64,000 bases of DNA from Synechococcus sp. JA-3-3Ab (GTDB lineage Bacteria; Cyanobacteriota; Cyanobacteriia; Thermostichales; Thermostichaceae), in contig NC_007775.1 of assembly GCF_000013205.1 (NCBI RefSeq), forward strand, positions 1,546,501 to 1,610,500, given 5' to 3'. Made by a program: the position numbers and the translations under genes. The notes beneath the pieces were generated by a model. It was given only the letters and a program-made list of their open reading frames with translations, had not been told where the DNA came from and made no database searches. This document shows positions 1,397 through 48,332 of this stretch, piece after piece (positions within the stretch are counted from its first letter, which is position 1; each line of letters begins with the position of its first letter).

Positions 1397-2224
1397 ATGA
1401 TGCACACCTTTATCCCGCCCCACCGTTTCTTTCCCTACCTGACCTGGACGGAGATCCAGGCCATGCCCGACAAAGAGAACGTAGTCATCATCCAGCCGGT
1501 GGCCTCAATCGAGCAGCACGGTCCCCATTTGCCCCTGGTGGTAGATGCCTGCATCGGCACGGCAATCATCGGGCGGGCCATGGAAAAACTAGAGCCGGAG
1601 ATCCCGGCCTATGTCCTGCCCACCCAGTGCTACGGCAAGGCCAACGAGCACTGGCATTTCCCCGGCACCATCACCCTCTCGGCGCAAACCCTGATGGCGG
1701 TGTTGACCGAAGTGGCCGAAAGCATTTACCGGGCTGGGTTTCGCAAGCTGGTGTTCCTCAACTCCCACGGCGGCCAGCCCGAGGTGCTGCAGATTGTGGC
1801 CCGCGACCTGCACCAGAAGTACGAAGATTTCCTGCTCTTCCCGGTGTCCGTCTGGCGCGTTCCCCACCAAGGCCAGGAGCTGATGACCGCAAAAGAGCAG
1901 GAATTGGGCATTCACGCCGGAGACGGCGAGACCAGCATGTTGATGTACCTGTTGCCCGAGACGGTGCGCACCGACCGCTTGGTCTGCGAGTACCCCTCGG
2001 ATCTGCCGCAAGATAGCTTGCTCAGCCTGGAAGGGCGGATCTCGTTTGCCTGGACAACCCGCGACCTCAGCCGGAGCGGCGTCCTGGGGGATGCCACCGC
2101 CGCCACGCCCGAAAAAGGCAAGCTCCTGGTCGAGTCGATGGCCGACGGCTGGGTGCGGCTGATCCGAGATCTGCACAAGTTCCAACAGCCCCAGGCCTGG
2201 CGCAAAGCCCCGCTGTCGGTCTAG
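1397..2224 (+). CDS. Creatininase-family (creatinine amidohydrolase-like) protein
   Basis: A 275-residue metal-dependent amidohydrolase of the creatininase fold. Seen: the metal-binding signature E39-Q-H41-G with D50 downstream, NSHGG around residue 124, and GDGETSML around residue 178. These match the usual His/Glu/Asp metal ligands and the family length (about 240-280). Members open cyclic or formamide amide bonds (creatinine, riboflavin intermediates, mycofactocin precursors), so the substrate cannot be named. It stands alone between a small hypothetical gene and the Uma2 pair, with about 150 bases of upstream non-coding DNA. Start ATG 1397; a second ATG follows immediately. Confidence 0.85.
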   Translation: MMHTFIPPHRFFPYLTWTEIQAMPDKENVVIIQPVASIEQHGPHLPLVVDACIGTAIIGRAMEKLEPEIPAYVLPTQCYGKANEHWHFPGTITLSAQTLMAVLTEVAESIYRAGFRKLVFLNSHGGQPEVLQIVARDLHQKYEDFLLFPVSVWRVPHQGQELMTAKEQELGIHAGDGETSMLMYLLPETVRTDRLVCEYPSDLPQDSLLSLEGRISFAWTTRDLSRSGVLGDATAATPEKGKLLVESMADGWVRLIRDLHKFQQPQAWRKAPLSV

Positions 2225-2350
2225 GGATCCCGGCAGGTTTCCTGACCTTTTGAGGCTTCTGGCCGGCCCTAGCCTGCTTCTCTGGAGCGGGAGGAGCGAC
2301 TTCTCGAGGGCTGATGATAGGCTTGAGGGAAACCCCCTGAGGGAAGAGCG

Positions 2351-3013
2351 ATGGTTCTTGCCTCAAAGCCAGCCACCCCCCCTGTCCTTGAGCGGCACGA
2401 CGCCACTTGGCAGGACTATGTGGCCATTCGCAGCCATCCTGACCTGGAGTGGCAAAAACTCTCCTTTCATCGGGGTTGGTTGTGGGTCAACATGGGCAAA
2501 GAAGGGCCGGAACACGCCTCCGTCAGCGATTTCATCACCATCATTTTCGGGTTTTGGGCCTTTTTGCACCCGGATGTGCCGCTGCAGTCCTATGGTCGCT
2601 GTCTGATTGAGTACCCAGAAACCCACGCCTGCGCCCCTGACCTAGTGCTCTACAAAGGGGAGAACATCCCCAAATACCAAGCCGGCGAGCCGCGGCGGAT
2701 TGATTTGCGTTTCCAAAGACCTCCCGACCTGGTGGGCGAAATTGCCGACACCACCCTGGCTCTTGACCTGGACGAGCAGAAGCAGCTTTATGCCAGTCTG
2801 GGCATTCGCGAGTACTGGGTCATCGATGTCAAGGGGCGGCGTGTTTTTGCCTTTGCCCTGGCCAAGGACAGGCGCTATCGGGCCATTGCCCAGTCAGAGG
2901 TGCTGGCGGGCCTGCAGATAGCTCTGCTTGAGCAGGCGCTGGAACGCCTGGCCAGCGAGACCAACACCGCCGCCGCCAACTGGCTCCTCCAACAGCTCCA
3001 ACGCCAGGCTTAA
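2351..3013 (+). CDS. Uma2-family putative restriction endonuclease (copy 1 of a tandem pair)
   Basis: A 220-residue protein of the Uma2/DUF820 family, a PD-(D/E)xK nuclease-fold group greatly expanded in cyanobacteria and of mostly unknown role. Seen: the PD of ACAPDLVLYKG, the acidic residue in VGEIAD, a lysine in DEQKQLYASLGI and the family block REYWVIDVKGRRV. The catalytic set therefore appears intact. It is separated by 23 bases from a near-identical copy. The main difference lies around bases 2529-2560 (FITIIFGFWAF here). No cognate methylase is nearby, so a restriction role is inference from the fold only. Confidence 0.88.
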   Translation: MVLASKPATPPVLERHDATWQDYVAIRSHPDLEWQKLSFHRGWLWVNMGKEGPEHASVSDFITIIFGFWAFLHPDVPLQSYGRCLIEYPETHACAPDLVLYKGENIPKYQAGEPRRIDLRFQRPPDLVGEIADTTLALDLDEQKQLYASLGIREYWVIDVKGRRVFAFALAKDRRYRAIAQSEVLAGLQIALLEQALERLASETNTAAANWLLQQLQRQA

Positions 3014-3702
3014 GATTCCCAGCTTCAGGATGGACTATGACTGTAATCTCTCTCAAGACCTCGACTTCCCCCATCCTCGAGCGGCACGACGCCACTTGGC
3101 AGGACTATGTGGCCATTCGCAGCCATCCTGACCTGGAGTGGCAAAAACTCTCCTTTCATCGGGGTTGGTTGTGGGTCAACATGGGCAAAGAAGGGCCAGA
3201 GCACGCCTCCGTCAGCGATTTGATGACGGCCATTTTTTTCGCCTGGGCCTTTTTGCACCCGGATGTGCCGCTGCAGTCCTATGGTCGCTGTCTGATTGAG
3301 TACCCAGAAACCCACGCCTGCGCCCCTGACCTAGTGCTCTACAAAGGGGAGAACATCCCCAAATACCAAGCCGGCGAGCCGCGGCGGATTGATTTGCGTT
3401 TCCAAAGACCTCCCGACCTGGTGGGCGAAATTGCTGACACCACCCTGGCTCTTGACCTAGACGAGCAAAAGCAGCTCTACGCCAGCCTGGGCATTCCTGA
3501 GTACTGGGTCATCGATGTCAAGGGTCGGCGTGTTTTTGCCTTTGCCCTGGCCAAGGACAGGCGCTATCGGGCCATTGCCCAGTCAGAGGTGCTGGCGGGC
3601 CTGCAGATAGCTCTGCTTGAGCAGGCGCTGGAACGCCTGGCCAGCGAGACCAACACCGCCGCCGCCAACTGGCTCCTCCAACAGCTCCAACGCCAGGCTT
3701 AA
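2390..3702 (+). repeat. Tandem gene duplication, 689-bp unit
   Basis: Bases 2390-3013 and 3079-3702 are nearly identical at the DNA level, offset by 689 bases. Identity includes most third codon positions and runs to the stop codon. The few differences comprise a cluster near 2529-2560 versus 3218-3249 that alters several residues, plus scattered synonymous changes near 2750-2830. The 5' ends (first 13-14 codons) are unrelated. The pattern indicates recent duplication or continuing gene conversion. Confidence 0.93.
3037..3702 (+). CDS. Uma2-family putative restriction endonuclease (copy 2 of a tandem pair)
   Basis: A 221-residue Uma2/DUF820 protein, the second copy of the pair. It keeps the same PD, GEIAD and DEQKQLYASLGI motif residues. 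Differences from copy 1 are confined to a distinct N-terminus (MTVISLKTSTSPI), a patch LMTAIFFAWAF in place of FITIIFGFWAF, and IPEYW for IREYW. The IPEYW/IREYW change lies beside the catalytic lysine helix and could reflect functional separation, but that is inference. Convergent with the Crp-type gene, leaving five bases between the stop codons. Confidence 0.88.
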   Translation: MTVISLKTSTSPILERHDATWQDYVAIRSHPDLEWQKLSFHRGWLWVNMGKEGPEHASVSDLMTAIFFAWAFLHPDVPLQSYGRCLIEYPETHACAPDLVLYKGENIPKYQAGEPRRIDLRFQRPPDLVGEIADTTLALDLDEQKQLYASLGIPEYWVIDVKGRRVFAFALAKDRRYRAIAQSEVLAGLQIALLEQALERLASETNTAAANWLLQQLQRQA

Positions 3703-3707
3703 AGCCG

Positions 3708-4346
3708 TCAGGGCGTTTGGGCCAGCTTGATGATGAGATGGCGGTTTTTGTCCACCGCGATCCAGCCCTGCTGGCGGAAACGGTTCAAAAGACGGGTGAT
3801 GGTGACGCGGGTAGTGCCGATGGCATTGGCCAAGTCTTGGTGGGTGAGGCGCACCTGCAGGCGCACCCCCGTCGCCATTGGGGATCCCAACTCCACCGCC
3901 AATAGGGAGAGCAACTGGCGCAGCCGATCCTCCACCCGCCGCCGCCCGGCCAAGGCCAGCAGCGCTTCGGTTTGGCGCAACCGCCGCACCAACTGCTTGA
4001 GCAGCCCCTGGCTCAGGGTTGCTGAGGCTTCCACCTCGGCTGCCGGCAGCCGCAACACGTCAACCGCCGTCAACGCCTTGGCTTGGTAGGGATCCAACAT
4101 TGTCAGCGGGGATCCCAGGGGCATGGAGGGGCCAGCAAATCCCAACAGCGCCTCGCCGCCATTGGGATAGAGGGTAGTCAATTGCACCACACCCCGACAG
4201 ACGATCACCCACTCCTCGGGAAACAAAGGGATGACCTGGCCGGGACTGTAGGGAGATAAACTGCGGCCTCGGTAGAGGTCTTCTAGCAATTGCCGCTCCC
4301 GTGTAGGCAGGCCGGCAGCAAAATGGCCGGGCATCGTTTCAGGCAT
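3708..4346 (-). CDS. Crp/Fnr-family transcriptional regulator
   Basis: A 212-residue DNA-binding regulator: an N-terminal cyclic-nucleotide-type beta barrel (about residues 25-115), a long dimer helix, then a winged helix-turn-helix at about 165-200 (LTHQDLANAIGTTRVTITRLL). The HTH resembles the NtcA/Crp group of cyanobacteria. No Fnr-type N-terminal cysteine cluster is visible, so iron-sulfur oxygen sensing is unlikely. The barrel is short and lacks an obvious cAMP phosphate-binding signature, so the ligand is unknown. Transcribed away from atpC; 257 bases separate the two starts. It is probably not NtcA itself, which is more strongly conserved. Confidence 0.82.
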   Translation of the reverse strand: MPETMPGHFAAGLPTRERQLLEDLYRGRSLSPYSPGQVIPLFPEEWVIVCRGVVQLTTLYPNGGEALLGFAGPSMPLGSPLTMLDPYQAKALTAVDVLRLPAAEVEASATLSQGLLKQLVRRLRQTEALLALAGRRRVEDRLRQLLSLLAVELGSPMATGVRLQVRLTHQDLANAIGTTRVTITRLLNRFRQQGWIAVDKNRHLIIKLAQTP

Positions 4347-4603
4347 AGGCTAGCTCCGCTAGGGCAAACTGGGCACACTGGTCGTTGGGCTTTCCCCTAC
4401 CAATAACAGCATGGGGTTGGCTTCGCGGCTGAGTTGGGGTAGAGGACAAGTGTTCCCGACAACACCTTACCGCTTGCCTCTTCGACGGAAGTAAAGGAGA
4501 GGTTATGCCCAGGTTAAGTCTCGCCACGCAGAGGGGCAGAACCGAGAGCAACCGCGATCCGGTAGGATAGAAGTGCCAAGCTCAACCCTTCAGGAGACCT
4601 GCT

Positions 4604-5011
4604 GTGACGCTGATGGTTCGCGTGATCACCCCCGACCGCACGGTTTGGGATGCCCCCGCCGAGGAAGTGATCCTCCCGGCTACCTCAGGTCAGTTGGGCA
4701 TCCTCACCAACCACGCCCCTCTCTTGACGGCCATCGGCAACGGCGTGATGCGGGTCAAGGCCGGTGGCAAGTGGTCGGCCATTGCCGTGATGGGCGGGTT
4801 TGCGGAAGTGGAAAATAACGAGGTAACCGTTCTGGTCAACCGCGCCGAGCGGGGAGAAAAAGTGGATAAGGCCGCAGCTCAGGCCCTCTTGGACAAAGCG
4901 AGCCAAGTTTTGAACACCAGCAGCGACAAGCAAGAGCGCCTGCAGGCCAAGTTGGATCAACAGCGGGCCAGGGCCTTGATCCAAGCCGCCGAGATGGGCC
5001 ACAAAAGCTGA
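4604..5011 (+). CDS. atpC: ATP synthase epsilon subunit (F1)
   Basis: A 135-residue epsilon subunit of the thylakoid F1 sector, coupling rotation to catalysis and inhibiting ATP hydrolysis. Seen: the beta-sandwich domain ([19 protein letters not shown], then [19 protein letters not shown]) and a C-terminal helical hairpin rich in Ala/Gln/Arg. The start is GTG at 4604, with AGGAG at 4592-4596 giving good spacing; the internal ATG at 4613 is an alternative. In many cyanobacteria this gene directly follows atpB, but here the upstream DNA holds only a divergent regulator gene. The subunit gene is thus separated from atpB, at least on this side. Confidence 0.95.
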
Positions 5012-5093
5012 GGGATCCCCGCTTTTCTTGGCAGGGGATCCGGCTGCGGGGCTGGCTTTGTTAAGCTGAAGCTCTTGGGGAGCTGGTGGTGCT

Positions 5094-5600
5094 ATGTTCA
5101 GTCCTGCAGTTGCCGATGGCGCATTGGGCAGCTTGAGAATTAGCCAGGTGGCGGCGGTGGCGGGGTTGCCGGTGCGCACGGTGCGCTACTACGAGTCGCT
5201 GGGCCTGCTGAAGCCAACGGTGCAGCGGTCGGAGTCCAGCTATCGCCTCTTCCATCCGGCAGTGCTGGGGCGGCTGGCTTTCATTCGCCGCTGCCAAAGC
5301 CTGGGCCTGAGCTTGGAGGAAATTCGCCAGATCCTGCAGTTGTACGACCGGGGGGAGCAGCCCTGCCCAGAAATCCGCCAACACCTGCAGGAGAAGCTGT
5401 GGCAAATCGAAGAGCGCATGGCCGAATTGCAAACTCTAAAAGGCCAAATTGAAAGCCTCCTTTCCGATTGGCGGATCCCAGCGGAACCGACGGCCCAGGA
5501 GGACGTGATCTGCCCGATTTTGCAAAAGCCAGAGGCCGGCGGTGACAAGGTTGGCAGACGCTACTCGACGGTTACCGACTTGGCCAGGTTGCGGGGCTGA
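5094..5600 (+). CDS. MerR-family transcriptional regulator, probably metal-responsive
   Basis: A 168-residue MerR regulator. Residues 14-40 form the helix-turn-helix ([20 protein letters not shown]), followed by the second wing helix and a long coiled dimerisation helix at about 85-125. Cys91 (at the start of the coiled helix, PCPEIRQHL) and Cys140 in a C-terminal VICPIL motif sit where MerR/ZntR/CadR-type sensors place metal ligands, so a thiophilic metal or zinc is a plausible effector. This is inference. The last 13 codons and the stop lie inside the 3' end of the convergent glmS gene, a 40-base coding overlap. No metal efflux gene is adjacent. Confidence 0.85.
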
Positions 5601-7408
5601 TCCACATCGGCCCCGCGGCGCAGCGCCATGGCGTAGGCAAACAGCTGCAGGGGGATGACGTTCAAAACCGCCGACAGCAGAGGTGTGGTGCTGGGCACCT
5701 CGATGACGTGGTCGGCTTTTTCCCGGACCTGGGTATCTTCCGGATTGATCAGGGCAATGACTCGCCCGCCCCGCGCCCGCACCTGCTCGATGTTGGAGAG
5801 CATTTTTTCGTAGACGGGATCGCGGGTGGCAATACACACCACCGGCATGCGCTCGTCGATGAGGGCAATGGGGCCATGCTTCATCTCCCCTGCTGGGTAG
5901 CCCTCGGCGTGGATGTAGCTGACCTCTTTCATTTTTAAGGCCCCCTCCAGGGCTATGGGGGCGTTGACCCAGCGGCCCAGGTAGAGCATGTCGGTGACGT
6001 GGTGGTACTGCTCCGCCAACTGCTCGTAGAGGGCGGCGTCTTTCAACAACAGGCTGATCTTGCCCGGCAGCTCGATTAAAGCTTGCAGGTGGGATCGGAT
6101 CTGGGCCGGGCTGAGGATCCCTTTGGCCTGGGCCAGTTGCAGGGCCAGCAGGTATCCTGCCACCAGCATGCCGGTAAACACCTTGGTGGAGGCGACGGCG
6201 ATCTCCGGCCCGGCGTGGATGTAGATCACCCCGGCATCCGCCAGACGAGTGGCCTGGGATCCGATGGCGTTGACGATGGCCAGGGTGGGGATCCCCTGAG
6301 TGCGGGCCTCGCTCATGGCCGCCAGCGTATCCACCGTCTCGCCGGACTGGGTGAGGGCCACCAGCAGGCTGTGGGGACGCAGCACCGGCTGGCGGTAGCG
6401 AAACTCGGAAGCGTAGTCCACCTGCACCGGGGTGCGGGCCAGGCTCTCAATGAAGTACTTGAGCACCAGGCAGGCGTGCCAGGCAGTGCCGCAGGCCACA
6501 GCGTGGATCTGCTCCACCTGAGCCAGTTGCGCTTCTGTCAGGGCCAGCCCCTCCAAGTTCACCCGGCCTGCTTCCAGATCCACCCGCCCCCGCAGCGTCT
6601 CGGTGATGGTGCGCGGCTGCTCGTGGATCTCTTTTTGCATGAAGTGCTTGTAGCCGCCCTTGGCCGCCGAGACCGGATCCCAGGCCACGGTAAGGGGGGT
6701 TTTGCGCAGCTCCTCGCCGGTAATGCGCTGATAGCGCACGCTGGAGTCGGTGAGGATGGCCATCTCTCCATCTTCCAGAAACACCACCCTGCGGGTGTGG
6801 CGGATGATGGCAGGCAGATCTGAGGCCACAAAATTTTCCCCTTCCCCCTCCCCAATCACCACAGCCCCGGCATTGCCCAGGCGGGCGGCAATCAGCCGAT
6901 CCGGCGCCTCCCGATCCAAAGCCACCACGGCATTTCCCCCCCGCAGCCGTCCCATCACTTTGCCAAAGGCCACCTCAAAGGATCCCAGCTCCTCGACGTA
7001 GAGACCGAGCAGTTGGGCAATGACTTCGGTATCGGTTTGAGAGCGAAAGGTAACCCCTCGCCGCAGCAGCTCTTCCTTTAGCTCCAGGTAGTTCTCCACA
7101 ATGCCGTTTTGAATAACCACGACGCGCCCCTGGACGTCGCAGTGGGGGTGGGCATTTTCTTCGCTAATGCCGCCGTGAGTGGCCCAGCGGGTATGCCCAA
7201 TCCCCACCTTGGCTGTGGGCATGTTTGTAGTGAGTTTCACCACCAGGTTGTGCAGCTTGCCGGCGGCCCGCACGATCCTCAAGCCTTCTTCTGGATCCAC
7301 GGTGGCAATGCCTGCGGAGTCATAGCCGCGATACTCCAAGGTGCGTAGGCCCTCCACCAGAATGGGGGCAGCCCACTGAAAGCCCACATAGCCGACAATG
7401 CCACACAT
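5561..7408 (-). CDS. glmS: Glutamine--fructose-6-phosphate aminotransferase (isomerizing)
   Basis: A 615-residue cytosolic enzyme making glucosamine-6-phosphate from fructose-6-phosphate and glutamine, the first step to UDP-GlcNAc for peptidoglycan. It begins MCGIVGYVG, so Cys2 is the N-terminal nucleophile of the glutaminase domain (about 1-240). Two SIS sugar-isomerase domains follow (about 290-430 and 460-600), and the protein ends [13 protein letters not shown], the conserved GlmS C-terminus. Length is normal for the family. No glmS ribozyme-like leader is recognisable in the 73 bases upstream. The 3' end overlaps the MerR gene by 40 bases. Confidence 0.97.
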
Positions 7409-40591: not shown

Positions 40592-42358
40592 TCAGGGATC
40601 CCCAAACTGCCGACCCCCGCAGGGTCTGGGAGCAAAAGCTGCGGCAAACTGGGCCAGGGTGTGGCGCAGTTGATCCAAGTTTTGGCCGTTGGCGGCGGAC
40701 ACAAACAGGGCCTTGGGGTAGAGCAGGCGCACGTCCTCGACCCATTCGGGATCGAGGCGGTCAATTTTGTTAAACACCAGTTGTCGCGGGCCGGTGGCCA
40801 GGGGCATCTCGTCCAGCAATGTTTCCACCGCCTCGATGTGCCCTTCCCAGTTGGGGTGGGAGAGATCCACCACGTGCAGCAGGGCATCCGCCTCCGTCAC
40901 CTCCTCCAGCGTGGCCTGGAAGGCCTCTACCAATTGCTCAGGCAGCTCGGTTAAGAATCCCACCGTGTCGGTCAACAGCACTGCCTGCTGGCCGGGCAGC
41001 TCCAGCCGCCGCGTAGTGGGATCCAAGGTGGCAAAGAGTTGGTCGGCCACGTAGACCTGGGCCTGGGTGAGGGCGTTGAGAAGGGTGGACTTGCCGGCGT
41101 TGGTGTAGCCCACCAGGGCCACCACGGGAATTTGGGATCCCTCCCGTCGCTGGCGCAGCCGTTGCCGGTGGCGGCGCAGCTCTTCCACCTCTTGCCGCAG
41201 CTTGCCGATGCGCCGCTGGATGGCCCGCCGCTCCATTTCCAGTTGGGTTTCCCCCGGGCCACGGGTGCCGATGCCCCCACCTAGCCGAGACATGGTGCGC
41301 CCTCGACCGGCCAAGCGAGGCAGCAAATACTGCAGTTGCGCCAGCTCCACCTGCAATTTCCCGGCCCGGGTTCTGGCCCGCTGGGCAAAAATATCCAGGA
41401 TCACCTCGCTGCGATCCACCACCCGCACTCCCAGGGCCTCTTCCAGGGTGCGCACCTGGCTGGGGGTAAGTTCCCGGTCGAACACCACCAAGTTAGCGCC
41501 CAGATCCTGGACCAGCAGCGCCAGCTCTTGCACCTTACCGGATCCGATTACCGTGGCCGAATTGGGGCCTTCCCGCCTCTGCCAGAGGGCTTGCAGCACC
41601 TGTCCGCCGGCACTCTCCACCAGGCGGCTCAGCTCCGCCAACCCATCCATGAGATCCTCGTAGCTCTGCCCGGACTCCTGCAGCCCCACCAGGATGGCCC
41701 GATCCTGATCCAGATCCACCTGGCGGGCGGTCAACTGGCGCCGAAACCCATCCTCCAGCTCCGCCACCAGCTCCTGCAGATCCTGTTCTGCCAGGATCCC
41801 CAAAGGCAAAGGCTCAGAAACCTGCCAACGGCGCTCTCCCTCCGGCAGCAGATGGGCCAGATAGGCCCGGTGAACAAAGCCCGTAGCCGCTCCTCCCCGG
41901 CGTCGGTGCCCTCCTGACTTGGACACGGAAAGGGTGATGAGGGCATCCAAACGCTGCAGGGCCATGGCCGTCAGCGCTTTTTGACCGGGGCCCCCCTCCC
42001 CCATTTGGGTGGTGATGCAGCGGATCCCGGATAGGCGCTCGGCCCCCTGGCGGGGCAATTCCCAAGCGGGAATCTGGGTTTCAAAAGGGGATCCCACCCC
42101 TACGCGGATCACCTGGCCGCGCCGGTTGAGGTAAACGCTGATGGGCCGGCCTTCCAACTCTTGGGTCAGGGATCCCAGCCGTTGGGCAAACTCCACCGTC
42201 ACCAAGCGGTCGGGGGGTAGGCGCAGTTGGTAAAGCCGTTGCAGTTGCTTTTGTTGGTGGGGCTTTAACCCTTTGGCCTGTTCGCGAAAGCCTCGCGTAG
42301 CGATAGCAGAGCTGAAGCGGGGGTTGGTCTGATGGCGAGAGGTGCTAGCCCTGGGCAT
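40592..42358 (-). CDS. hflX: GTPase HflX
   Basis: 588 residues, long for HflX because of a cyanobacterial N-terminal extension (about 1-215). The HflX domain follows: VFDRELTPSQVRTLEEALG, the family signature RLGGGIGTRGPGETQLEMERR, and the G domain with G1 GYTNAGKST, G3 DTVGFL and G4 NKIDRL. HflX binds 50S subunits and rescues stalled or heat-stressed ribosomes by splitting them. The C-terminus is short. Transcribed in the same direction as the flavodiiron gene, about 115 bases upstream of it. Confidence 0.95.
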   Translation of the reverse strand: MPRASTSRHQTNPRFSSAIATRGFREQAKGLKPHQQKQLQRLYQLRLPPDRLVTVEFAQRLGSLTQELEGRPISVYLNRRGQVIRVGVGSPFETQIPAWELPRQGAERLSGIRCITTQMGEGGPGQKALTAMALQRLDALITLSVSKSGGHRRRGGAATGFVHRAYLAHLLPEGERRWQVSEPLPLGILAEQDLQELVAELEDGFRRQLTARQVDLDQDRAILVGLQESGQSYEDLMDGLAELSRLVESAGGQVLQALWQRREGPNSATVIGSGKVQELALLVQDLGANLVVFDRELTPSQVRTLEEALGVRVVDRSEVILDIFAQRARTRAGKLQVELAQLQYLLPRLAGRGRTMSRLGGGIGTRGPGETQLEMERRAIQRRIGKLRQEVEELRRHRQRLRQRREGSQIPVVALVGYTNAGKSTLLNALTQAQVYVADQLFATLDPTTRRLELPGQQAVLLTDTVGFLTELPEQLVEAFQATLEEVTEADALLHVVDLSHPNWEGHIEAVETLLDEMPLATGPRQLVFNKIDRLDPEWVEDVRLLYPKALFVSAANGQNLDQLRHTLAQFAAAFAPRPCGGRQFGDP

Positions 42359-42447
42359 GGGGACGGGGAAAGACCCAAAAACAAGCTTTCATCTACCATA
42401 CACGCTAGCTGACAGCAGGAACTTGGGATCCAAAAGCAACGGCGGCA

Positions 42448-42464
42448 AACACTGGCCCAGTGTT
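42448..42464. repeat. Perfect 17-bp palindrome
   Basis: AACACTGG-C-CCAGTGTT, eight-base arms around a single central base, in the 271-base gap between hflX and the DUF488 gene. It could be a dimeric regulator site about 90 bases upstream of hflX (minus strand). No U-tract follows on either side, and the single-base centre is poor for an RNA hairpin. The rest of the gap shows no convincing gene. Confidence 0.65.
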
Positions 42465-42629
42465 GGATCTGCCCAAGCGGGGATCCCTGTATTGAGCTTG
42501 CTGTCGGTGAGAGAGTTTCCAAATCGGTTGGGCAGTCAGGGATCCCTTTCGCTCCGTGTTGCCGGAATCCTGCTGCAACTCGGAGTAGCTGCATAAATCG
42601 GAAAAATCCGTAGTGCCAGCTCTTAGTTA

Positions 42630-43061
42630 TCATAGATGCACGATTTCAACATCACCCCATTTTCTGTGCAAATATTCAGCAACCAGCCTACGATGACAGT
42701 GCTCAGGTGTAGCTTCACTACAAAGCAGACATCCTCCATCGAGAATACTTTTATCCACTTGATCTTCAATGCGACGCTCGGCCATCAGCGACAAAAACTG
42801 TCTCTCGTAGTTAGACCATTCACCACTGGCTTTGTAAGCATCGAGAATCTCTTGAGTTGGTGCAAGTTCCGGCAAATGAACATATCCAAGCTTGCAGATC
42901 TCGTGAAGAAAAAACTCTAGATCCCTCTTTTTCGTGAATCCCGCCAGTTGCGAGGTGTTATTAAGTCGAGTATCAACAACTCGAACCAGACCAGGCTGTT
43001 TTAAGCGATTAAAAAATTGCTCTGCACTTTTCTTCGTAAACCCTATCGTAAATATCTTCAT
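42630..43061 (-). CDS. DUF488-family protein
   Basis: 143 residues. Begins MKIFTIGFTKKSAEQFFNRLK, with the family landmarks VRVVDTRLNNTSQLAGFTKKRDLEFFL, YERQFLSLM and the cysteine-containing CLLCSEATPEHCHRRLVAEYL. The fold is not catalytically characterised; DUF488 genes often occur in accessory islands. The start codon overlaps the stop of a 59-codon frame upstream by four bases (ATGA), indicating coupling. Lower GC than the flanking genes, consistent with an acquired segment. Confidence 0.88.
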   Translation of the reverse strand: MKIFTIGFTKKSAEQFFNRLKQPGLVRVVDTRLNNTSQLAGFTKKRDLEFFLHEICKLGYVHLPELAPTQEILDAYKASGEWSNYERQFLSLMAERRIEDQVDKSILDGGCLLCSEATPEHCHRRLVAEYLHRKWGDVEIVHL

Positions 43062-43237
43062 GGCCTCGCGCTCCGCTCATCACTTTTTGACATTTTCTCA
43101 TCTCGATAGGCGACACGCCTGCCTTGAATGAGATAGGCTTCGGCTATAAACTCTTCCCGACTTCTAAACAAGTCCCCCTCTGGAAGTTTGCAAAGGGCAA
43201 GAAGACGAGATTCTAGAGCCTCATGAGACGCATCCAT
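43058..43237 (-). CDS. Small ORF coupled to the DUF488 gene (59 aa)
   Basis: Function not recognised. Begins MDASHEALESRLLALCKLPEGD; the middle FRSREEFIAEAYLIQGRRVAYRDEKM looks like a compact helical protein. The ATG lies inside the remnant of the dual-OB-like gene, in another frame, and the stop shares ATGA with the DUF488 start. It may be a real small partner or a by-product of the deletion that truncated the neighbour. Confidence 0.45.
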   Translation of the reverse strand: MDASHEALESRLLALCKLPEGDLFRSREEFIAEAYLIQGRRVAYRDEKMSKSDERSARP

Positions 43238-43335
43238 TCCCCCGGCTCTCCGTTCTGCCATTCCTTGCCGGCAATACAGCGACCGGCCATTTTTCTGGAG
43301 TTGGCGAAACAGACAATCGTCTTGGCGTAAGACAT
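43213..43335 (-). pseudogene. Truncated remnant of a dual OB-domain protein, the usual DUF488 partner
   Basis: A 40-codon frame, ATG 43335 to TAG 43213, reads KTIVCFANSRKMAGRCIAGK and then a tract ending GEWMR. This matches my recollection of the N-terminus of 'dual OB domain-containing' proteins (CLANSRK-x-SGRCIAG...W-IRPVS). The frame then stops after five more codons, whereas the intact family is several times longer. The rest appears deleted up to the 59-codon ORF. A single 115-codon frame across the region (43058-43405) is out of phase with this homology and is not the real gene. Confidence 0.6.
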
Positions 43336-43401
43336 ACAGGCTTCTGGGGCAAGGGCAAAGGCTCAATGGGAGTAATTTTCGGCTTCTTGAAAGTCCAGTA
43401 G

Positions 43402-44358
43402 TCAAATCCGTTCTTCAGGGCGAAAGGGGATCAAAAGAGCGCGGGGCGCCCTGGCATGGCGAGAGACCAAGATCAACGCCGCAATACTGAGAAGATAGGG
43501 CAACATCAAAAAAAACTGATAGGGGATCCGGCTGCCCCAAAGCTGCTGAAGGCGTAATTGCAAGGCATCAAATCCAGCAAACAACAATGCCCCTGCCAAG
43601 GCTCGCCAGGGATCCCAAGCGGCAAAAACCACCAGGGCAATGCAAATCCACCCCCGCCCATTGACGATATTCAAGAAAAACGCATCGAACGCAGAGAGGG
43701 TTAAAAAAGCACCGGCCACGGCCATAAGAGCGCTGCCCACCATCACGGCCCCGGTGCGAACGGCATAGACCGGGATCCCCTGGGAAGCGGCAGCCTGGGG
43801 ATTTTCTCCAACCATGCGCACGGCCAGGCCCAGCGGAGTTCGGTAGAGGATGTAGGCCATGAGGGGCACCAGGAGAAGGCCGAGGTAGGTGAGGGGCGGC
43901 TGGGTAAACAGGGTTTCTCCCAGAAAGGGCAGGCTGGAGAGACCCGGGATCGGCCAAGGACTGAAGGGGACGATTTTGGGGGGAGAGGTGACCTGGGGCA
44001 GGGCCATGCGATAGACAAAATAGGCAGCATTGATGGTCAAGAGGGTAATGCCAATGCCGGTGACGTGCTGGGAAACCCCAAGGCGGACGGTCAACAGGCT
44101 GTGAATCAAGCCCACACCTGCACCGAGGACGGCAGCAAAGGCTACGCCCCACCACAATCCGGATCCCTGATAGACCACCAGCCAACCGGTCATGGCCCCC
44201 AGGGTCATGATCCCTTCGATGCCCAAATTGAGAACGCCGGCCCGCTCACAGAGGACTTCGCCCAAAGTGCCAAAGAGCAAGGGAGTGGCAATGCGCAGGG
44301 TGGCCACCCAGAAGCTGGTGGTGCTGATTAAGCTGATTAGACTCAGGAGTGCAGACAC
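43402..44358 (-). CDS. Nucleoside-type ABC transporter permease (second permease)
   Basis: 318 residues, about eight to nine membrane helices. Permease of the BMP-family (YufQ/NupQ, BmpA-linked) ABC importers for nucleosides or related compounds. Seen: LLFGTLGEVLCERAGVLNLGIEGIMTLGAMTGWLV, the family signature near the N-terminus, and GENPQAAASQGIPVYAVRTGAVMVGSALMAVAGAFL, the ATPase-contact region. Last gene of a four-gene set, six bases after the first permease stop. Confidence 0.92.
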   Translation of the reverse strand: MSALLSLISLISTTSFWVATLRIATPLLFGTLGEVLCERAGVLNLGIEGIMTLGAMTGWLVVYQGSGLWWGVAFAAVLGAGVGLIHSLLTVRLGVSQHVTGIGITLLTINAAYFVYRMALPQVTSPPKIVPFSPWPIPGLSSLPFLGETLFTQPPLTYLGLLLVPLMAYILYRTPLGLAVRMVGENPQAAASQGIPVYAVRTGAVMVGSALMAVAGAFLTLSAFDAFFLNIVNGRGWICIALVVFAAWDPWRALAGALLFAGFDALQLRLQQLWGSRIPYQFFLMLPYLLSIAALILVSRHARAPRALLIPFRPEERI

Positions 44359-44364
44359 GGGTGC

Positions 44365-45414
44365 TCAGTCCCAGCGCAGACGATAACGGGCCAATCCCAT
44401 GCAGACCAACATCCACAGCAGGGCAGCAGCAACAATGACATCGGCAAGATAGGTGGGAACGCCCAAGCTACGCCCCATGGTATCGGCTCCCACATAAACC
44501 CCGGCAATGAAAACTGCGGCCCCCACCACTCCCAAGGGATGCAGTTGGGCCAACAGGGCAACAACAATGCCGGTGTAGCCAAAGCCAGGGGATAAATCCA
44601 AGGTGAGATAGCCCTTGAGCCCGAGGAGTTCACAAGCTCCCGCCAAGCCTGCCAGCCCACCTCCCAACAATGAGGTATATAAAATAACTCTCCGGACTGG
44701 GATGCCGAGGAACCTGGCCGCTTCTGGGTTGGCGCCTACGGCTCGCATTTCTAAGCCCCAAACGGTGAACCGCTCTATGGCCCACACCCCCAGGGCAGCG
44801 AGCAGGGCGATGATTAAACCAGCGTGGAGACGACTGCGGGGGATCAGCCGCGGCAGTAGGGCGGCATCCACAAGGGCACGACCTTGGGGCCAACCCAGAG
44901 CCAGAGGATCTTTGAGGGGGCCTTCCAGGAGATAGCTAATCCCGAGAAGAATGACAAAATTGAGCAGCAAGGTGGTCACCACTTCGTCCACCTGGAACTG
45001 GGTCTTGAGCCAGGCCGGGATCCACAGCAGCAGCCCTCCAGCAATCCAGCCCGCCAGCAGCAGCACCAACACCAACCATGGGCGCGGCAGCGAAAGCCCA
45101 CCGGTGCCCAAGAGGCTGGCAGCCAGAGCCCCACCATAAAACTGGCCTTCCGCACCGATGTTCCACAACTTGGCCCGAAAACACACCGCCACCGCCAATC
45201 CCGTCAGGATCAGAGGAACGGCCCGAGTCAAGGTCTCGCTTAGGGCAAAGGGGGATCCCACCGCTCCCCGCAGCAAAGCTCCATAGGCTGCCAAAACCGG
45301 GGATCCCGTCCACAGGATCAGCAGGCTACAGGAGAGGAAAGCCAGGACAATGGCTGCCATCGGCGCACTCAGGATCAGCCAAAGGGGCACAGTGGAACGA
45401 GGTTCAACACGCAT
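44365..45414 (-). CDS. Nucleoside-type ABC transporter permease (first permease)
   Basis: 349 residues, about nine to ten membrane helices. Partner permease (YufP/NupP type) with SETLTRAVPLILTGLAVAVCFRAKLWNIGAEGQFYGGALAA and RAVGANPEAARFLGIPVRRVILYTSLLGGGLAGLAGACELLG as family landmarks. Its start overlaps the ATPase 3' end by 11 bases, indicating coupled translation within the operon. Confidence 0.92.
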   Translation of the reverse strand: MRVEPRSTVPLWLILSAPMAAIVLAFLSCSLLILWTGSPVLAAYGALLRGAVGSPFALSETLTRAVPLILTGLAVAVCFRAKLWNIGAEGQFYGGALAASLLGTGGLSLPRPWLVLVLLLAGWIAGGLLLWIPAWLKTQFQVDEVVTTLLLNFVILLGISYLLEGPLKDPLALGWPQGRALVDAALLPRLIPRSRLHAGLIIALLAALGVWAIERFTVWGLEMRAVGANPEAARFLGIPVRRVILYTSLLGGGLAGLAGACELLGLKGYLTLDLSPGFGYTGIVVALLAQLHPLGVVGAAVFIAGVYVGADTMGRSLGVPTYLADVIVAAALLWMLVCMGLARYRLRWD

Positions 45415-46966
45415 CGGCCACCTCCTGCCCGGCCATACGCAACCCCAAGGCGGTCACCGTTGTGGTTTGGGTCGGGACTGCCGAGGAAAGCCGACCGCGA
45501 TAGAGCACCGCCACCCGATCGGCCAAACTCAGCAATTCATCCAAGTCTTCAGAAATGAGCAGGATCCCGGCTCCAGCCCGGGCTGCTGCCAGCAGTTGGG
45601 CATGCACGTAAGCCACAGCCCCCAGATCCAGTCCCCGCGTCGGTTGGTGAGCCACAATCACCTGGGGATCCCGACACAGCTCCCGCGAGAGGATCACTTT
45701 TTGCATATTTCCGCCGGACAGCAGTTGCACCGGCATCTGGAGCGCCCGCCAGGGATCCCCCCTCTGGAGCCCCCGCACATCGTAGGTCTGTAGCCAGGTG
45801 TGAGCCTGCTGATAGATTTGGCGGTGACGCAGGATCCCCCACCGCGAGAATTCGGGATCCCGATAGCGCTCGATGACCCAGTTTTCCCATAGGCTAAGGG
45901 AACCAATCAGCCCAGTTTTGTGGCGGTCTTCTGGGATCCGGGCCATGCCTTGCCGCACCATCTCAGCAGGAGAGATCAGCCGCAGGACTCGGCCATGCAG
46001 ATGGAGATGACCTTGGTGGGGCCGGATCACCCCACAGACCAGATCTGCCAGAACGGCCTGCCCATTGCCCGCCACCCCGGCAATACCCACGATTTCGTGA
46101 CGCCGCACCGTCAAAGAAACCTGCTCCAGATGCTGCTGCCCTGCCCGACAGGAGACCTGCTGCAACTCTAAGACCGTCTCCCCCGGAGACAAAGGGGCTT
46201 TGACCACCGCCGCCAACCGCTGCCCCACCATCGCTTCCGCCAGAGCTGTGGGATGGATCTCAGCCGTCTTGCCCGTCATCACCACCCGCCCTGAGCGCAG
46301 CACCATCACCCGGTCACTGATGCGCATCACCTCCTGGAGCTTGTGGGAAATCAGCAGGATCCCCAGCCCGCGACCGGCCATCTGCCGTAGGGTGTGAAAA
46401 AACGGCTCAATTTCCGGTGGGGTCAACACCGCCGTAGGCTCATCCAAAATCAGGATCCGCGCCCCTCGATACAGCACCTTGAGGATCTCCACCCGCTGCC
46501 GCTCCCCCAAGGTTAGAGATCCCACCAGAGCATCGGGATCCACGGCCAACCCCAATTCCTCAGCTAGCTTTTGGATGCGCCGCCGTCCCTCTCGCCGCCG
46601 AGACCACAGGTGCCACAGGGGCTGAGTGCCCAGCAGAATGTTGTCCAGCACCGACAGATTATCGGCCAAGACCACATGCTGATGCACCATGCCTATCCCT
46701 GCCGCCAGGGCAGCCGCCGGGGATCCCAGCTTGAGGGGCCGACCAAACACCCACACCTGACCCTGATCGGGAACGTAGTGCCCAAACAGGATGTTCATCA
46801 GTGTCGTTTTGCCCGCCCCATTTTCCCCCAAGATGGCCAGAATCTCCCCGGCCCGCAGCTCAAGATCAATCTGGTCGTTGGCCAGCAGAGCACCAAAGCG
46901 CTTAGTAATGCCCACCACCTTCAAGGCCAAAGGCGCTTCAGAGGGTGGACTTGGGTTCGCTGTCAT
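45404..46966 (-). CDS. Nucleoside-type ABC transporter ATP-binding protein (two NBDs)
   Basis: 520 residues with two fused nucleotide-binding domains, like RbsA/YufO. The first has Walker A GENGAGKTT at about 45, signature LTLGERQRVEIL and Walker B ILILDEPTAVLTP. The second has the atypical P-loop GVAGNGQAVLADL, signature LLSGGNMQKVILSRE and HQPTRGLDLG, usual for this family, where the second site is degenerate. Its start overlaps the binding-protein gene by 29 bases. Confidence 0.93.
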   Translation of the reverse strand: MTANPSPPSEAPLALKVVGITKRFGALLANDQIDLELRAGEILAILGENGAGKTTLMNILFGHYVPDQGQVWVFGRPLKLGSPAAALAAGIGMVHQHVVLADNLSVLDNILLGTQPLWHLWSRRREGRRRIQKLAEELGLAVDPDALVGSLTLGERQRVEILKVLYRGARILILDEPTAVLTPPEIEPFFHTLRQMAGRGLGILLISHKLQEVMRISDRVMVLRSGRVVMTGKTAEIHPTALAEAMVGQRLAAVVKAPLSPGETVLELQQVSCRAGQQHLEQVSLTVRRHEIVGIAGVAGNGQAVLADLVCGVIRPHQGHLHLHGRVLRLISPAEMVRQGMARIPEDRHKTGLIGSLSLWENWVIERYRDPEFSRWGILRHRQIYQQAHTWLQTYDVRGLQRGDPWRALQMPVQLLSGGNMQKVILSRELCRDPQVIVAHQPTRGLDLGAVAYVHAQLLAAARAGAGILLISEDLDELLSLADRVAVLYRGRLSSAVPTQTTTVTALGLRMAGQEVADAC

Positions 46967-47966
46967 CGATGGCTACAACAAAAGACCCTGCCAGAATCTC
47001 TGCCTGCCGCTGCATCACCTTAGCTTTCAGTTCAGCCGGAACCTTGTCGGCAAAGGTTCCCCAGTCGGAGAGGCTGGATCCCCCATATTTCATCATGCTG
47101 TAGATCCCGTAGTCCTCTGCCTTAAACTCTCCGGCCTTCACCGCGGCAATGGCTCTGTCGATGGTGGGTTCCATGTGCCACAGGGCGCTGACCACCACCG
47201 TTTCCGGGTAGTCCGGCTGGGTATCGATCACATTGCCGATGGCCAAAACGCCCCTCTCTTTGGCGGCATCAGATACCCCAAACCGCTCCGCGTAAAGGAT
47301 ATCTGCGCCGGCATCAATTTGGGCAAAAGCCGCCTCTTTGGCTTTGGGGGGATCAAACCAACTGCCGATAAAGGTGACCAAAAACTTCACCTCCGGCTGC
47401 AGTTCCCTCGCCCCTGCCATAAAAGCATTCATGAGGCGGTTCACCTCTGGAATGGGATAGCCCCCCACCATGCCGATAATTTTGGAGCGGGTCAGCCCCC
47501 CGGCCACCATTCCCGTCAGATAGGAAGGCTCGTGGATGTAGTTGTCAAACACGGCAAAATTGCTCAGGGCAGGATCCGGCTTGAGGCTGGACCCCATCAA
47601 AAAGCTGACCTTGGGATAGTCTTTGGCCACCTCCCGCGCTTCCCGCTCCACCCCAAAGACCTCACCCACCAGCAGTTGGACGCCGCTCTCGGCATACTGA
47701 CGCAGCACCCGTGGATAGTCGGTGTTGGAAACTGACTCCGACCAGGTATAGTCAATATCCCCCCGCTCCTGGGCGGTCATCAAGGCTTTATGGATCCGGC
47801 TCACCCACTGCTGCTCAATGGGAACCGTATAAACCCCGGCCACCTTCAGCTTGGTTCCTTGAGCCACCGCGGCATCGCGAACCAACCAGCGGCTCCCCAT
47901 CAGGCCAGCCACAAAAGCCCCAGAACGCAGGCAGAAGTCCCGCCGGGAGAGTTCTAAACGTGCCAT
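46938..47966 (-). CDS. BMP-family ABC transporter substrate-binding protein
   Basis: 342 residues. Periplasmic binding protein of the basic membrane protein (BMP/PnrA) family, which binds purine nucleosides in characterised members. The N-terminus SRRDFCLRSGAFVAGLMG resembles a twin-arginine signal, with cleavage probably near AVAQG. The body has VAGVYTVPIEQQW, VQLLVGEVFGVEREA, YLTGMVAGGLTRSKIIGMVGGYPIPEVNR and AGADILYAERFGVSDAAKERG. First gene of the operon. The substrate is not proven; a nucleoside fits the family and the nearby codA. Confidence 0.9.
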   Translation of the reverse strand: MARLELSRRDFCLRSGAFVAGLMGSRWLVRDAAVAQGTKLKVAGVYTVPIEQQWVSRIHKALMTAQERGDIDYTWSESVSNTDYPRVLRQYAESGVQLLVGEVFGVEREAREVAKDYPKVSFLMGSSLKPDPALSNFAVFDNYIHEPSYLTGMVAGGLTRSKIIGMVGGYPIPEVNRLMNAFMAGARELQPEVKFLVTFIGSWFDPPKAKEAAFAQIDAGADILYAERFGVSDAAKERGVLAIGNVIDTQPDYPETVVVSALWHMEPTIDRAIAAVKAGEFKAEDYGIYSMMKYGGSSLSDWGTFADKVPAELKAKVMQRQAEILAGSFVVAIDDSEPKSTL

Positions 47967-48332
47967 AGTCGCTTCTGTTGAGGTTACTTCGAGATCGGGT
48001 TACTGCTCGGCTTATCCTAAGGGGGAGATCCCTGAAAATATGTATCCTGAAATACAATTTTTTGAGAAGGAGCTTGTTTGTAATGGACAACGAAGTTTCG
48101 CTGACGGTTGGAATGGATGTAAGGGCCAAGTCCTCTCAAATCAGCTCTCGATAGATTATCCCTCTGACTACTTGGTTGATATCTTGCACAACCGGATGCT
48201 GTTGGGGACTACAGCCCTCTTTTATAAAGTGAGCAATAACCCAATCAACTGGTTTCCTAAATTCGGGCTTTGAGGTAATTTAAGACATCTTTATCTGATT
48301 TGGCCTATCATTCAGCTAGAAATCGCAGGAGC
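47967..48332. other. Intergenic region upstream of the BMP operon and the tnpB element
   Basis: About 365 bases with no supported gene. It should contain the BMP-operon promoter (minus strand) and the left boundary of the IS element. A 77-codon frame at 48040-48273 has no ribosome-binding site and no protein-like pattern, so I do not call it. The AT content is higher than the surroundings. Confidence 0.5.

What the first reader, a model, noticed from the sequence alone, without database searches (positions are those of the whole stretch)
42630..43335. DUF488 gene coupled to a small ORF grown from a decayed dual-OB partner
A 40-codon remnant with the diagnostic FANSRK-MAGRCIAGK motif lies just before DUF488. 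A 59-codon ORF starting inside the remnant in another frame overlaps the DUF488 start by ATGA. Either the DUF488/dual-OB pair, whose role is unknown, has lost its partner here, or a new small partner has replaced it.
Basis: partly seen in the sequence, partly recalled or inferred. Interest (0 to 1): 0.55.

Follow-up and report, generated by a model that had tools for sequence, protein, structure and literature searches.

The report
Deletion relic of candidate defence operon
This spot in a hot-spring cyanobacterium is what is left of a three-gene cassette that databases list as a candidate anti-phage system: one deletion removed most of two genes and left the third whole, so the small "new" gene is a leftover tail rather than an invention.

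Summary
In detail: a DuOB (dual-OB) N-terminal remnant, a 59-codon ORF and an intact DUF488 gene joined by ATGA. The reading changes. A sister species (G004) keeps the intact locus as three ATGA-linked genes: DuOB (227 aa), a second DUF488 (DUF488a, 205 aa) and DUF488b (143 aa, identical to the window's). The window lacks exactly 1,020 bp of this, from DuOB codon 37 to within DUF488a. So 56 of the 59 codons are the DUF488a C-terminal tail in its native frame; only the start comes from DuOB DNA. A second species (G003) has the same junction, so this is no assembly error. PADLOC already lists the cassette as phage-defence candidate PDC-M45 (A = DuOB, B = DUF488a, C = DUF488b); all three window pieces match. 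The cassette is widespread. The window lineage's copy has the non-cyanobacterial gene order and falls outside the cyanobacterial clade, so it was probably acquired horizontally. Most likely the defence unit is dead here and DUF488b is an orphan. Retention for an independent DNA-damage-type role remains open: solitary DUF488b sits beside UvrA-like or UvrB genes in formaldehyde cassettes on plasmids.

The parts
42630..43061 (-). DUF488b = PDC-M45C, 143 aa, intact, with the C-S-E-x5-C-H-R-R motif; the only whole gene left of the cassette
   Evidence: identical in amino acids to G004 DUF488b, 97% to G003
43058..43237 (-). 59-codon ORF: C-terminal tail of DUF488a (PDC-M45B); its last 56 codons align to DUF488a codons 150-205 in native frame, and its start codon and first codons come from DuOB DNA in a foreign frame
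   Evidence: conserved tail motif seen in DUF488a relatives
43213..43335 (-). 40-codon ORF: DuOB (PDC-M45A) codons 1-36 (43228-43335) plus four read-through codons ending at TAG
43226..43227 (.). Deletion junction: 1,020 bp present in G004 (L033 4445-5464) is absent; 1-bp microhomology (G); same junction in G003
42459..42460 (.). Second deletion relative to G004: 193 bp between two GTGTTG repeats, also shared with G003
42460..43227 (.). Tract 99.6% identical to G004, in a 42.46-48.3 kb stretch at 97-99.6%, against 81-87% in the blocks outside 38.7-48.3 kb: interspecies exchange
43402..44358 (-). Upstream flank, context only: ABC permease (BPD_transp_2) of a Bmp/PnrA-like import operon
40592..42358 (-). 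Downstream flank, context only: 588-aa GTPase (GTP-bdg_N, GTP-bdg_M, MMR_HSR1; the name HflX is recalled)

Best explanation
The locus is a deletion relic of a DuOB - DUF488a - DUF488b operon (PADLOC candidate PDC-M45). An ancestor of this lineage acquired the cassette horizontally from a non-cyanobacterial source. One illegitimate 1,020-bp deletion then ran from DuOB codon 37 into the C-terminal part of DUF488a, leaving a DuOB stub, a DUF488a tail that happens to have a start codon, and an intact DUF488b. In the intact cassette (inferred, not shown) DuOB, whose model has OB-like beta modules of the kind that bind single-stranded nucleic acid, would recruit the two Cys-based phosphatase/rhodanese-like DUF488 enzymes to foreign or damaged nucleic-acid ends. 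Without DuOB and DUF488a the defence function is most likely gone here. DUF488b is an orphan whose reading frame has been kept intact, partly because the segment was exchanged with the intact-operon species. Shown: the origin of each piece, the deletion, its sharing by two species, and the cassette's identity. Inferred: biochemical function, loss of defence, horizontal origin, direction of exchange.
For: Intact ATGA-linked operon in G004, with DUF488b identical in protein. Exact 1,020-bp gap and 1-bp microhomology, same junction in G003. PADLOC: G004 proteins hit PDC-M45A/B/C at 1.3e-85, 2.2e-86 and 1.8e-71; window pieces hit M45A 1-36, M45B 151-200 and M45C 1-144. The DUF488a tail motif is conserved in DUF488a proteins of other genomes. 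DuOB and DUF488b co-occur: 14 of 59 genomes have DuOB, 15 of 59 a DUF488b-like match, and 14 are the same genomes. Of 80 related loci, 52 are DuOB-a-b, 10 a-b-DuOB, 7 a-b, 9 b alone, 1 DuOB-a-b-DuOB and 1 DuOB-b. Horizontal origin: the window protein sits in a 19-row clade of proteobacterial, Chlorobi and other rows (100/93), apart from the 19-row cyanobacterial clade (99/95), and G004 has the non-cyanobacterial gene order. The window genome has no other DUF488 or DuOB match.
Against: DUF488b is not visibly decaying: G000-G003 dN 0.015 against dS 0.27, which fits a protein still in use, although part of that divergence belongs to the intact lineage. The 59-codon frame is still open in G003. 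Defence function of PDC-M45 is a candidate listing only: the held papers contain no occurrence of PDC-M45. Structural matches are below Z 8, so the fold comparisons are weak.
Confidence: 0.93

Rival explanations
1. The 59-codon ORF is a new functional small partner of DUF488b that replaced DuOB.
For: It is open in both deletion-bearing genomes and keeps the ATGA coupling.
Against: Its sequence is the inherited DUF488a tail. Between G004 and G003 it has 5 nucleotide changes in replacement codons against 4 in synonymous codons, while DUF488b has 4 against 20 (Fisher p=0.073, not significant): no sign of stronger constraint.
Confidence: 0.04
2. The orphan DUF488b is kept for a stand-alone role, perhaps in DNA damage or nucleic-acid end repair, independent of the defence cassette.
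For: dN/dS about 0.06 between G000 and G003. Of 80 loci, 9 show DUF488b alone, 5 of them with full flanks, scattered over the tree. Solitary DUF488b stands beside a UvrA-like gene and frmR on a plasmid, a segment at least 80% present in 82 plasmid records, and beside UvrB on a Comamonas plasmid.
Against: The window's copy is not in a repair neighbourhood. G000's copy was recently exchanged with the intact-operon species, so its intactness may reflect that. A similar relic (L094) has an in-frame stop in its DUF488b.
Confidence: 0.25
3. The 59-codon ORF is still translated and acts only as a coupling leader that feeds ribosomes to DUF488b.
For: The ancestral ATGA overlap is kept.
Against: The ORF needs initiation at an ATG that was out of frame in the ancestor; a ribosome on the DuOB stub stops at the TAG at 43213-43215, inside the ORF but in another frame. 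No promoter-like site was found in 42350-43700, which is weak evidence.
Confidence: 0.25
4. Assembly or sequencing artefact.
For: None found.
Against: The same junction occurs in a separately assembled species at about 91% local identity.
Confidence: 0.01

Closest known systems
PDC-M45 (PADLOC-DB v2.0.0, phage-defence candidate, three genes A/B/C)
   Same: All three window pieces match its three models, in the order A-B-C
   Different: A is cut to 36 codons, B to its last 56 codons; only C is whole
Pfam DuOB PF22557 and DUF488 PF04343 (DUF488-N3a PF22751)
   Same: Domain matches above curated cut-offs
   Different: The DuOB match covers only 31 of 210 positions
RapZ-C/DUF488/DUF4326 clade of the rhodanese-phosphatase superfamily (Burroughs and Aravind 2023, recalled; paper not held)
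   Same: The DUF488b model resembles PTP-type phosphatases, RapZ and diphthine synthase
   Different: Z under 8, no credible sequence match to solved structures; no activity tested
Solitary DUF488 in plasmid uvrA-DUF488-frmR segments
   Same: DUF488b without an adjacent DUF488a or DuOB annotated
   Different: 56% identical to the window protein, neighbours are repair and formaldehyde genes, elsewhere in the tree

Membership tests
PDC-M45 | M45A (DuOB) gene | tested here: not met
   Only positions 1-36 of 230 remain
PDC-M45 | M45B (DUF488a) gene with catalytic core | tested here: not met
   Only positions 151-200 of 204 remain; no other DUF488 in the genome
PDC-M45 | M45C (DUF488b) gene | tested here: met
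   Positions 1-144 of 145, E=1.8e-71
PDC-M45 | Adjacent, same strand, overlapping genes | tested here: met
   Order A-B-C kept by the fragments; ATGA overlap kept at B/C
PDC-M45 | Protects against phage | not testable with these tools
   Candidate listing only; no held paper mentions PDC-M45
DUF488 (PF04343) | Profile match over cut-off and conserved Cys/His/Arg motif | tested here: met
   87.1 bits against 22.2; C114, C122, H123, R124 invariant in 13 of 13 aligned proteins
DuOB (PF22557) | Full two-OB domain | tested here: not met
   31 of 210 positions; the intact G004 protein covers 1-210
Rhodanese-phosphatase superfamily fold | Rossmannoid fold with active-site Cys loop | tested here: inconclusive
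   Model pLDDT 86; best Z 7.0, RapZ Z 5.1, all under 8

The most novel reading that the evidence does not exclude
DUF488b is a nucleic-acid-end or crosslink-repair enzyme that works without DuOB and DUF488a. The defence cassette is a specialised use of it, and lineages repeatedly shed the other two genes while keeping it, as in this genome and in plasmid uvrA-DUF488-frmR segments.
Probability: 0.18. Interest if true: 0.55.

Novelty: new member of a known kind. Interest (0 to 1): 0.28.

Why it matters
The puzzle is resolved: a supposedly new gene is explained by one deletion in a catalogued candidate defence cassette. What stays useful is a natural test pair, two interbreeding hot-spring species, one with the intact cassette and one with only DUF488b, plus a lead that solitary DUF488b travels with nucleotide-excision-repair and formaldehyde genes on plasmids, which may show what this enzyme family acts on.

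Tried and rejected
Rejected: de novo origin of the 59-codon ORF (it is the DUF488a tail); assembly error (shared junction); a weak eukaryotic Pfam match of the 59-codon ORF (NSRP1_N, E=0.0036, below cut-off). No NCBIfam match for any piece, no Rfam match in 42200-43700, no promoter-like site (0 found, 1.0 expected). Sequence profiles of DUF488b and DuOB found no credible solved relative. An empty insertion site could not be shown: in the loci of the other three same-genus genomes the GTPase matched without the permease beside it. Neighbour genes of the cassette include KwaB, HEC-01, mad, BrxL and UvrD families, but no control set was run, so this is description only. Phage records gave only 7 weak matches, all Gordonia phages at 27% identity. 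A paper search for frmR, uvrA, plasmid and formaldehyde resistance together found none.

Dropped rows: one DuOB row (L029) was left out of A3 because its stretch holds a stop. 119 of 126 first-neighbour ORFs were given to the family scans; 7 were left out. Loci with a split DUF488b (2 of 80: L048, L094) were left out of the tree; G004 was represented by the identical window protein. Papers: the eLife hybridization paper PMC12755884 was seen as outline with abstract and found passages; all others only as search listings; Burroughs and Aravind 2023 is recalled.

Full report
WHAT IS THERE. On the minus strand of the window lie a 40-codon ORF (43213-43335), a 59-codon ORF (43058-43237) that starts inside it in another frame, and a 143-codon DUF488 gene (42630-43061) whose ATG overlaps the stop of the 59-codon ORF as ATGA. 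The 40-codon ORF matches Pfam DuOB positions 1-31 of 210 (E=5.3e-10) and the DUF488 gene matches PF04343 (E=1.8e-24) and DUF488-N3a.

WHERE THE PIECES COME FROM. The window lies in a 2,932,766-base genome. Among 59 genomes searched, a same-genus genome, G004 (3,046,682 bases), has a full DuOB gene and a DUF488 protein identical to the window's. Its locus (L033) reads DuOB 227 aa, DUF488a 205 aa, DUF488b 143 aa, each pair joined by an ATGA overlap.

THE DELETION. A three-way alignment shows 1,020 bp of G004 (L033 4445-5464) missing in the window and, with the same junction, in a third species, G003; the junction shares one base. It leaves DuOB codons 1-36 and DUF488a codons 150-205. Because DuOB and DUF488a are in different frames, the DuOB stub runs four codons past the junction and stops, while an ATG that was out of frame in DuOB now opens the DUF488a tail. 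In PADLOC the 59-codon ORF matches PDC-M45B positions 151-200 (E=4e-10), the stub PDC-M45A 1-36 (E=2.4e-14) and the whole gene PDC-M45C 1-144 (E=1.8e-71). The tail motif (SREE...EAY..QG..IAY) is seen in DUF488a proteins of other genomes whose rows extend that far. The ORF is therefore an inherited fragment.

THE INTACT CASSETTE. PADLOC lists it as phage-defence candidate PDC-M45. In 59 genomes DuOB occurs in 14 and DUF488b-like proteins in 15; 14 are shared, and the fifteenth (G035) is a 29% match. Of 11 genomes outside the genus, 9 have DUF488a-DUF488b-DuOB and 2 (G039, G052) have DUF488b and DuOB with no DUF488a found in the fetched stretch. Of 80 named related loci, the best 80 of 573, 52 are DuOB-a-b, 10 a-b-DuOB (all ten cyanobacteria, the only cyanobacteria by title), 7 a-b, 9 b alone (5 with full flanks), 1 DuOB-a-b-DuOB and 1 DuOB-b. 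Of the 7 a-b loci, L050 and L071 have a divergent DuOB match over the cut-off, L052 one below it, and in L074 DuOB and DUF488a lie in one frame.

ORIGIN. The window's DUF488b is up to 76% identical to Chlorobiaceae and Competibacteraceae proteins but at most 63-64% to cyanobacteria outside its genus. In the tree it lies in a 19-row clade of mostly proteobacterial and other non-cyanobacterial rows (100/93), away from a 19-row cyanobacterial clade (99/95); the tree has few columns and many weak forks. G004 also has the non-cyanobacterial gene order. Horizontal acquisition is the simplest reading. Three of six same-genus genomes carry any part of it.

LATER EXCHANGE. The window is 99.6% identical to G004 over 42460-43227, 96.9% over 43227-46763 and 98.6% over 47263-48315, against 81-82% at 34.1-38.1 kb, about 87-90% at 38.7-42.5 kb and 86.6% at 49.6-55.4 kb. 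Site patterns between window, G003 and G004 change across the junction. This fits the documented hybridization of these populations, with about 15% divergence between the two references (PMC12755884, abstract and passages). So the intact state of DUF488b in this genome is not by itself proof of long-term use after the deletion. G003, which also has the deletion, keeps DUF488b open with dN 0.015 and dS 0.27 relative to the window. For the tail dN is 0.032 and dS 0.111; the contrast in change types between tail and DUF488b (5:4 against 4:20, G004-G003) is suggestive only (p=0.073).

HOW IT WORKS (inferred). The DUF488b model (pLDDT 86) resembles Rossmannoid methylases, PTP phosphatases including an RNA 5'-phosphatase, and RapZ, all at Z 7.0 or less; the DuOB model (pLDDT 86.5) resembles single-strand-binding OB folds over residues 1-105, and its second half matches part of BrxL, all at Z 7.7 or less. 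These are weak matches. Together with the invariant C114, C122, H123 and R124 I read the cassette as a nucleic-acid-binding guide with two Cys-dependent end- or sugar-phosphate-processing enzymes. Without guide and first enzyme the defence function is most likely lost.

PARALLELS. L094 (Candidatus Binatota MAG) has a truncated DuOB, no DUF488a core, a possible DUF488a tail (6.3 bits, weak) and a DUF488b with an in-frame stop: a similar decay, apparently independent. In contrast, solitary DUF488b seems successful on plasmids: 132 plasmid records match DUF488b at 1e-5 but 8 match DUF488a at 1e-20 (different thresholds); a uvrA-DUF488-frmR segment is at least 80% present in 82 records.

VERDICT. 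A relic of a known candidate system. Interest is low to moderate; the open question is whether orphan DUF488b still does something.

Noticed in passing
L121 (NZ_CP086392.1 plasmid) 2158-6072; L143 2074-7734: Solitary DUF488b-type genes stand beside a UvrA-like gene and frmR on enterobacterial plasmids (82 records hold at least 80% of the segment) and beside UvrB in a Comamonas plasmid with S-(hydroxymethyl)glutathione dehydrogenase nearby.
   Followed up: partly
window 42460-48315: Stretch 97-99.6% identical to another species (G004) while the blocks outside 38.7-48.3 kb are 81-87%: interspecies exchange.
   Followed up: partly
window 42459/42460: A 193-bp deletion between GTGTTG repeats, shared with G003, just downstream of the DUF488 gene.
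   Followed up: no
L094 4032-4932: Apparently independent similar relic: truncated DuOB, DUF488a core lost, DUF488b with an in-frame stop.
   Followed up: partly
L011 and L016 (G039): DuOB in two pieces (profile 2-95 and 126-210) about 2 kb apart in one genome, suggesting an insertion; DUF488a not found there.
   Followed up: no
L142 (NZ_CP032923.1) 2597-6838: An intact cassette on a conjugative Agrobacterium plasmid lies next to TcmP and DUF5131 genes; DUF5131 is also upstream of the relic in L094.
   Followed up: no
L062, L069, L095, L096, L101, L108, L113, L115, L117, L120: All ten cyanobacterial loci of the 80 have DuOB last instead of first: a lineage-wide permuted gene order.
   Followed up: partly
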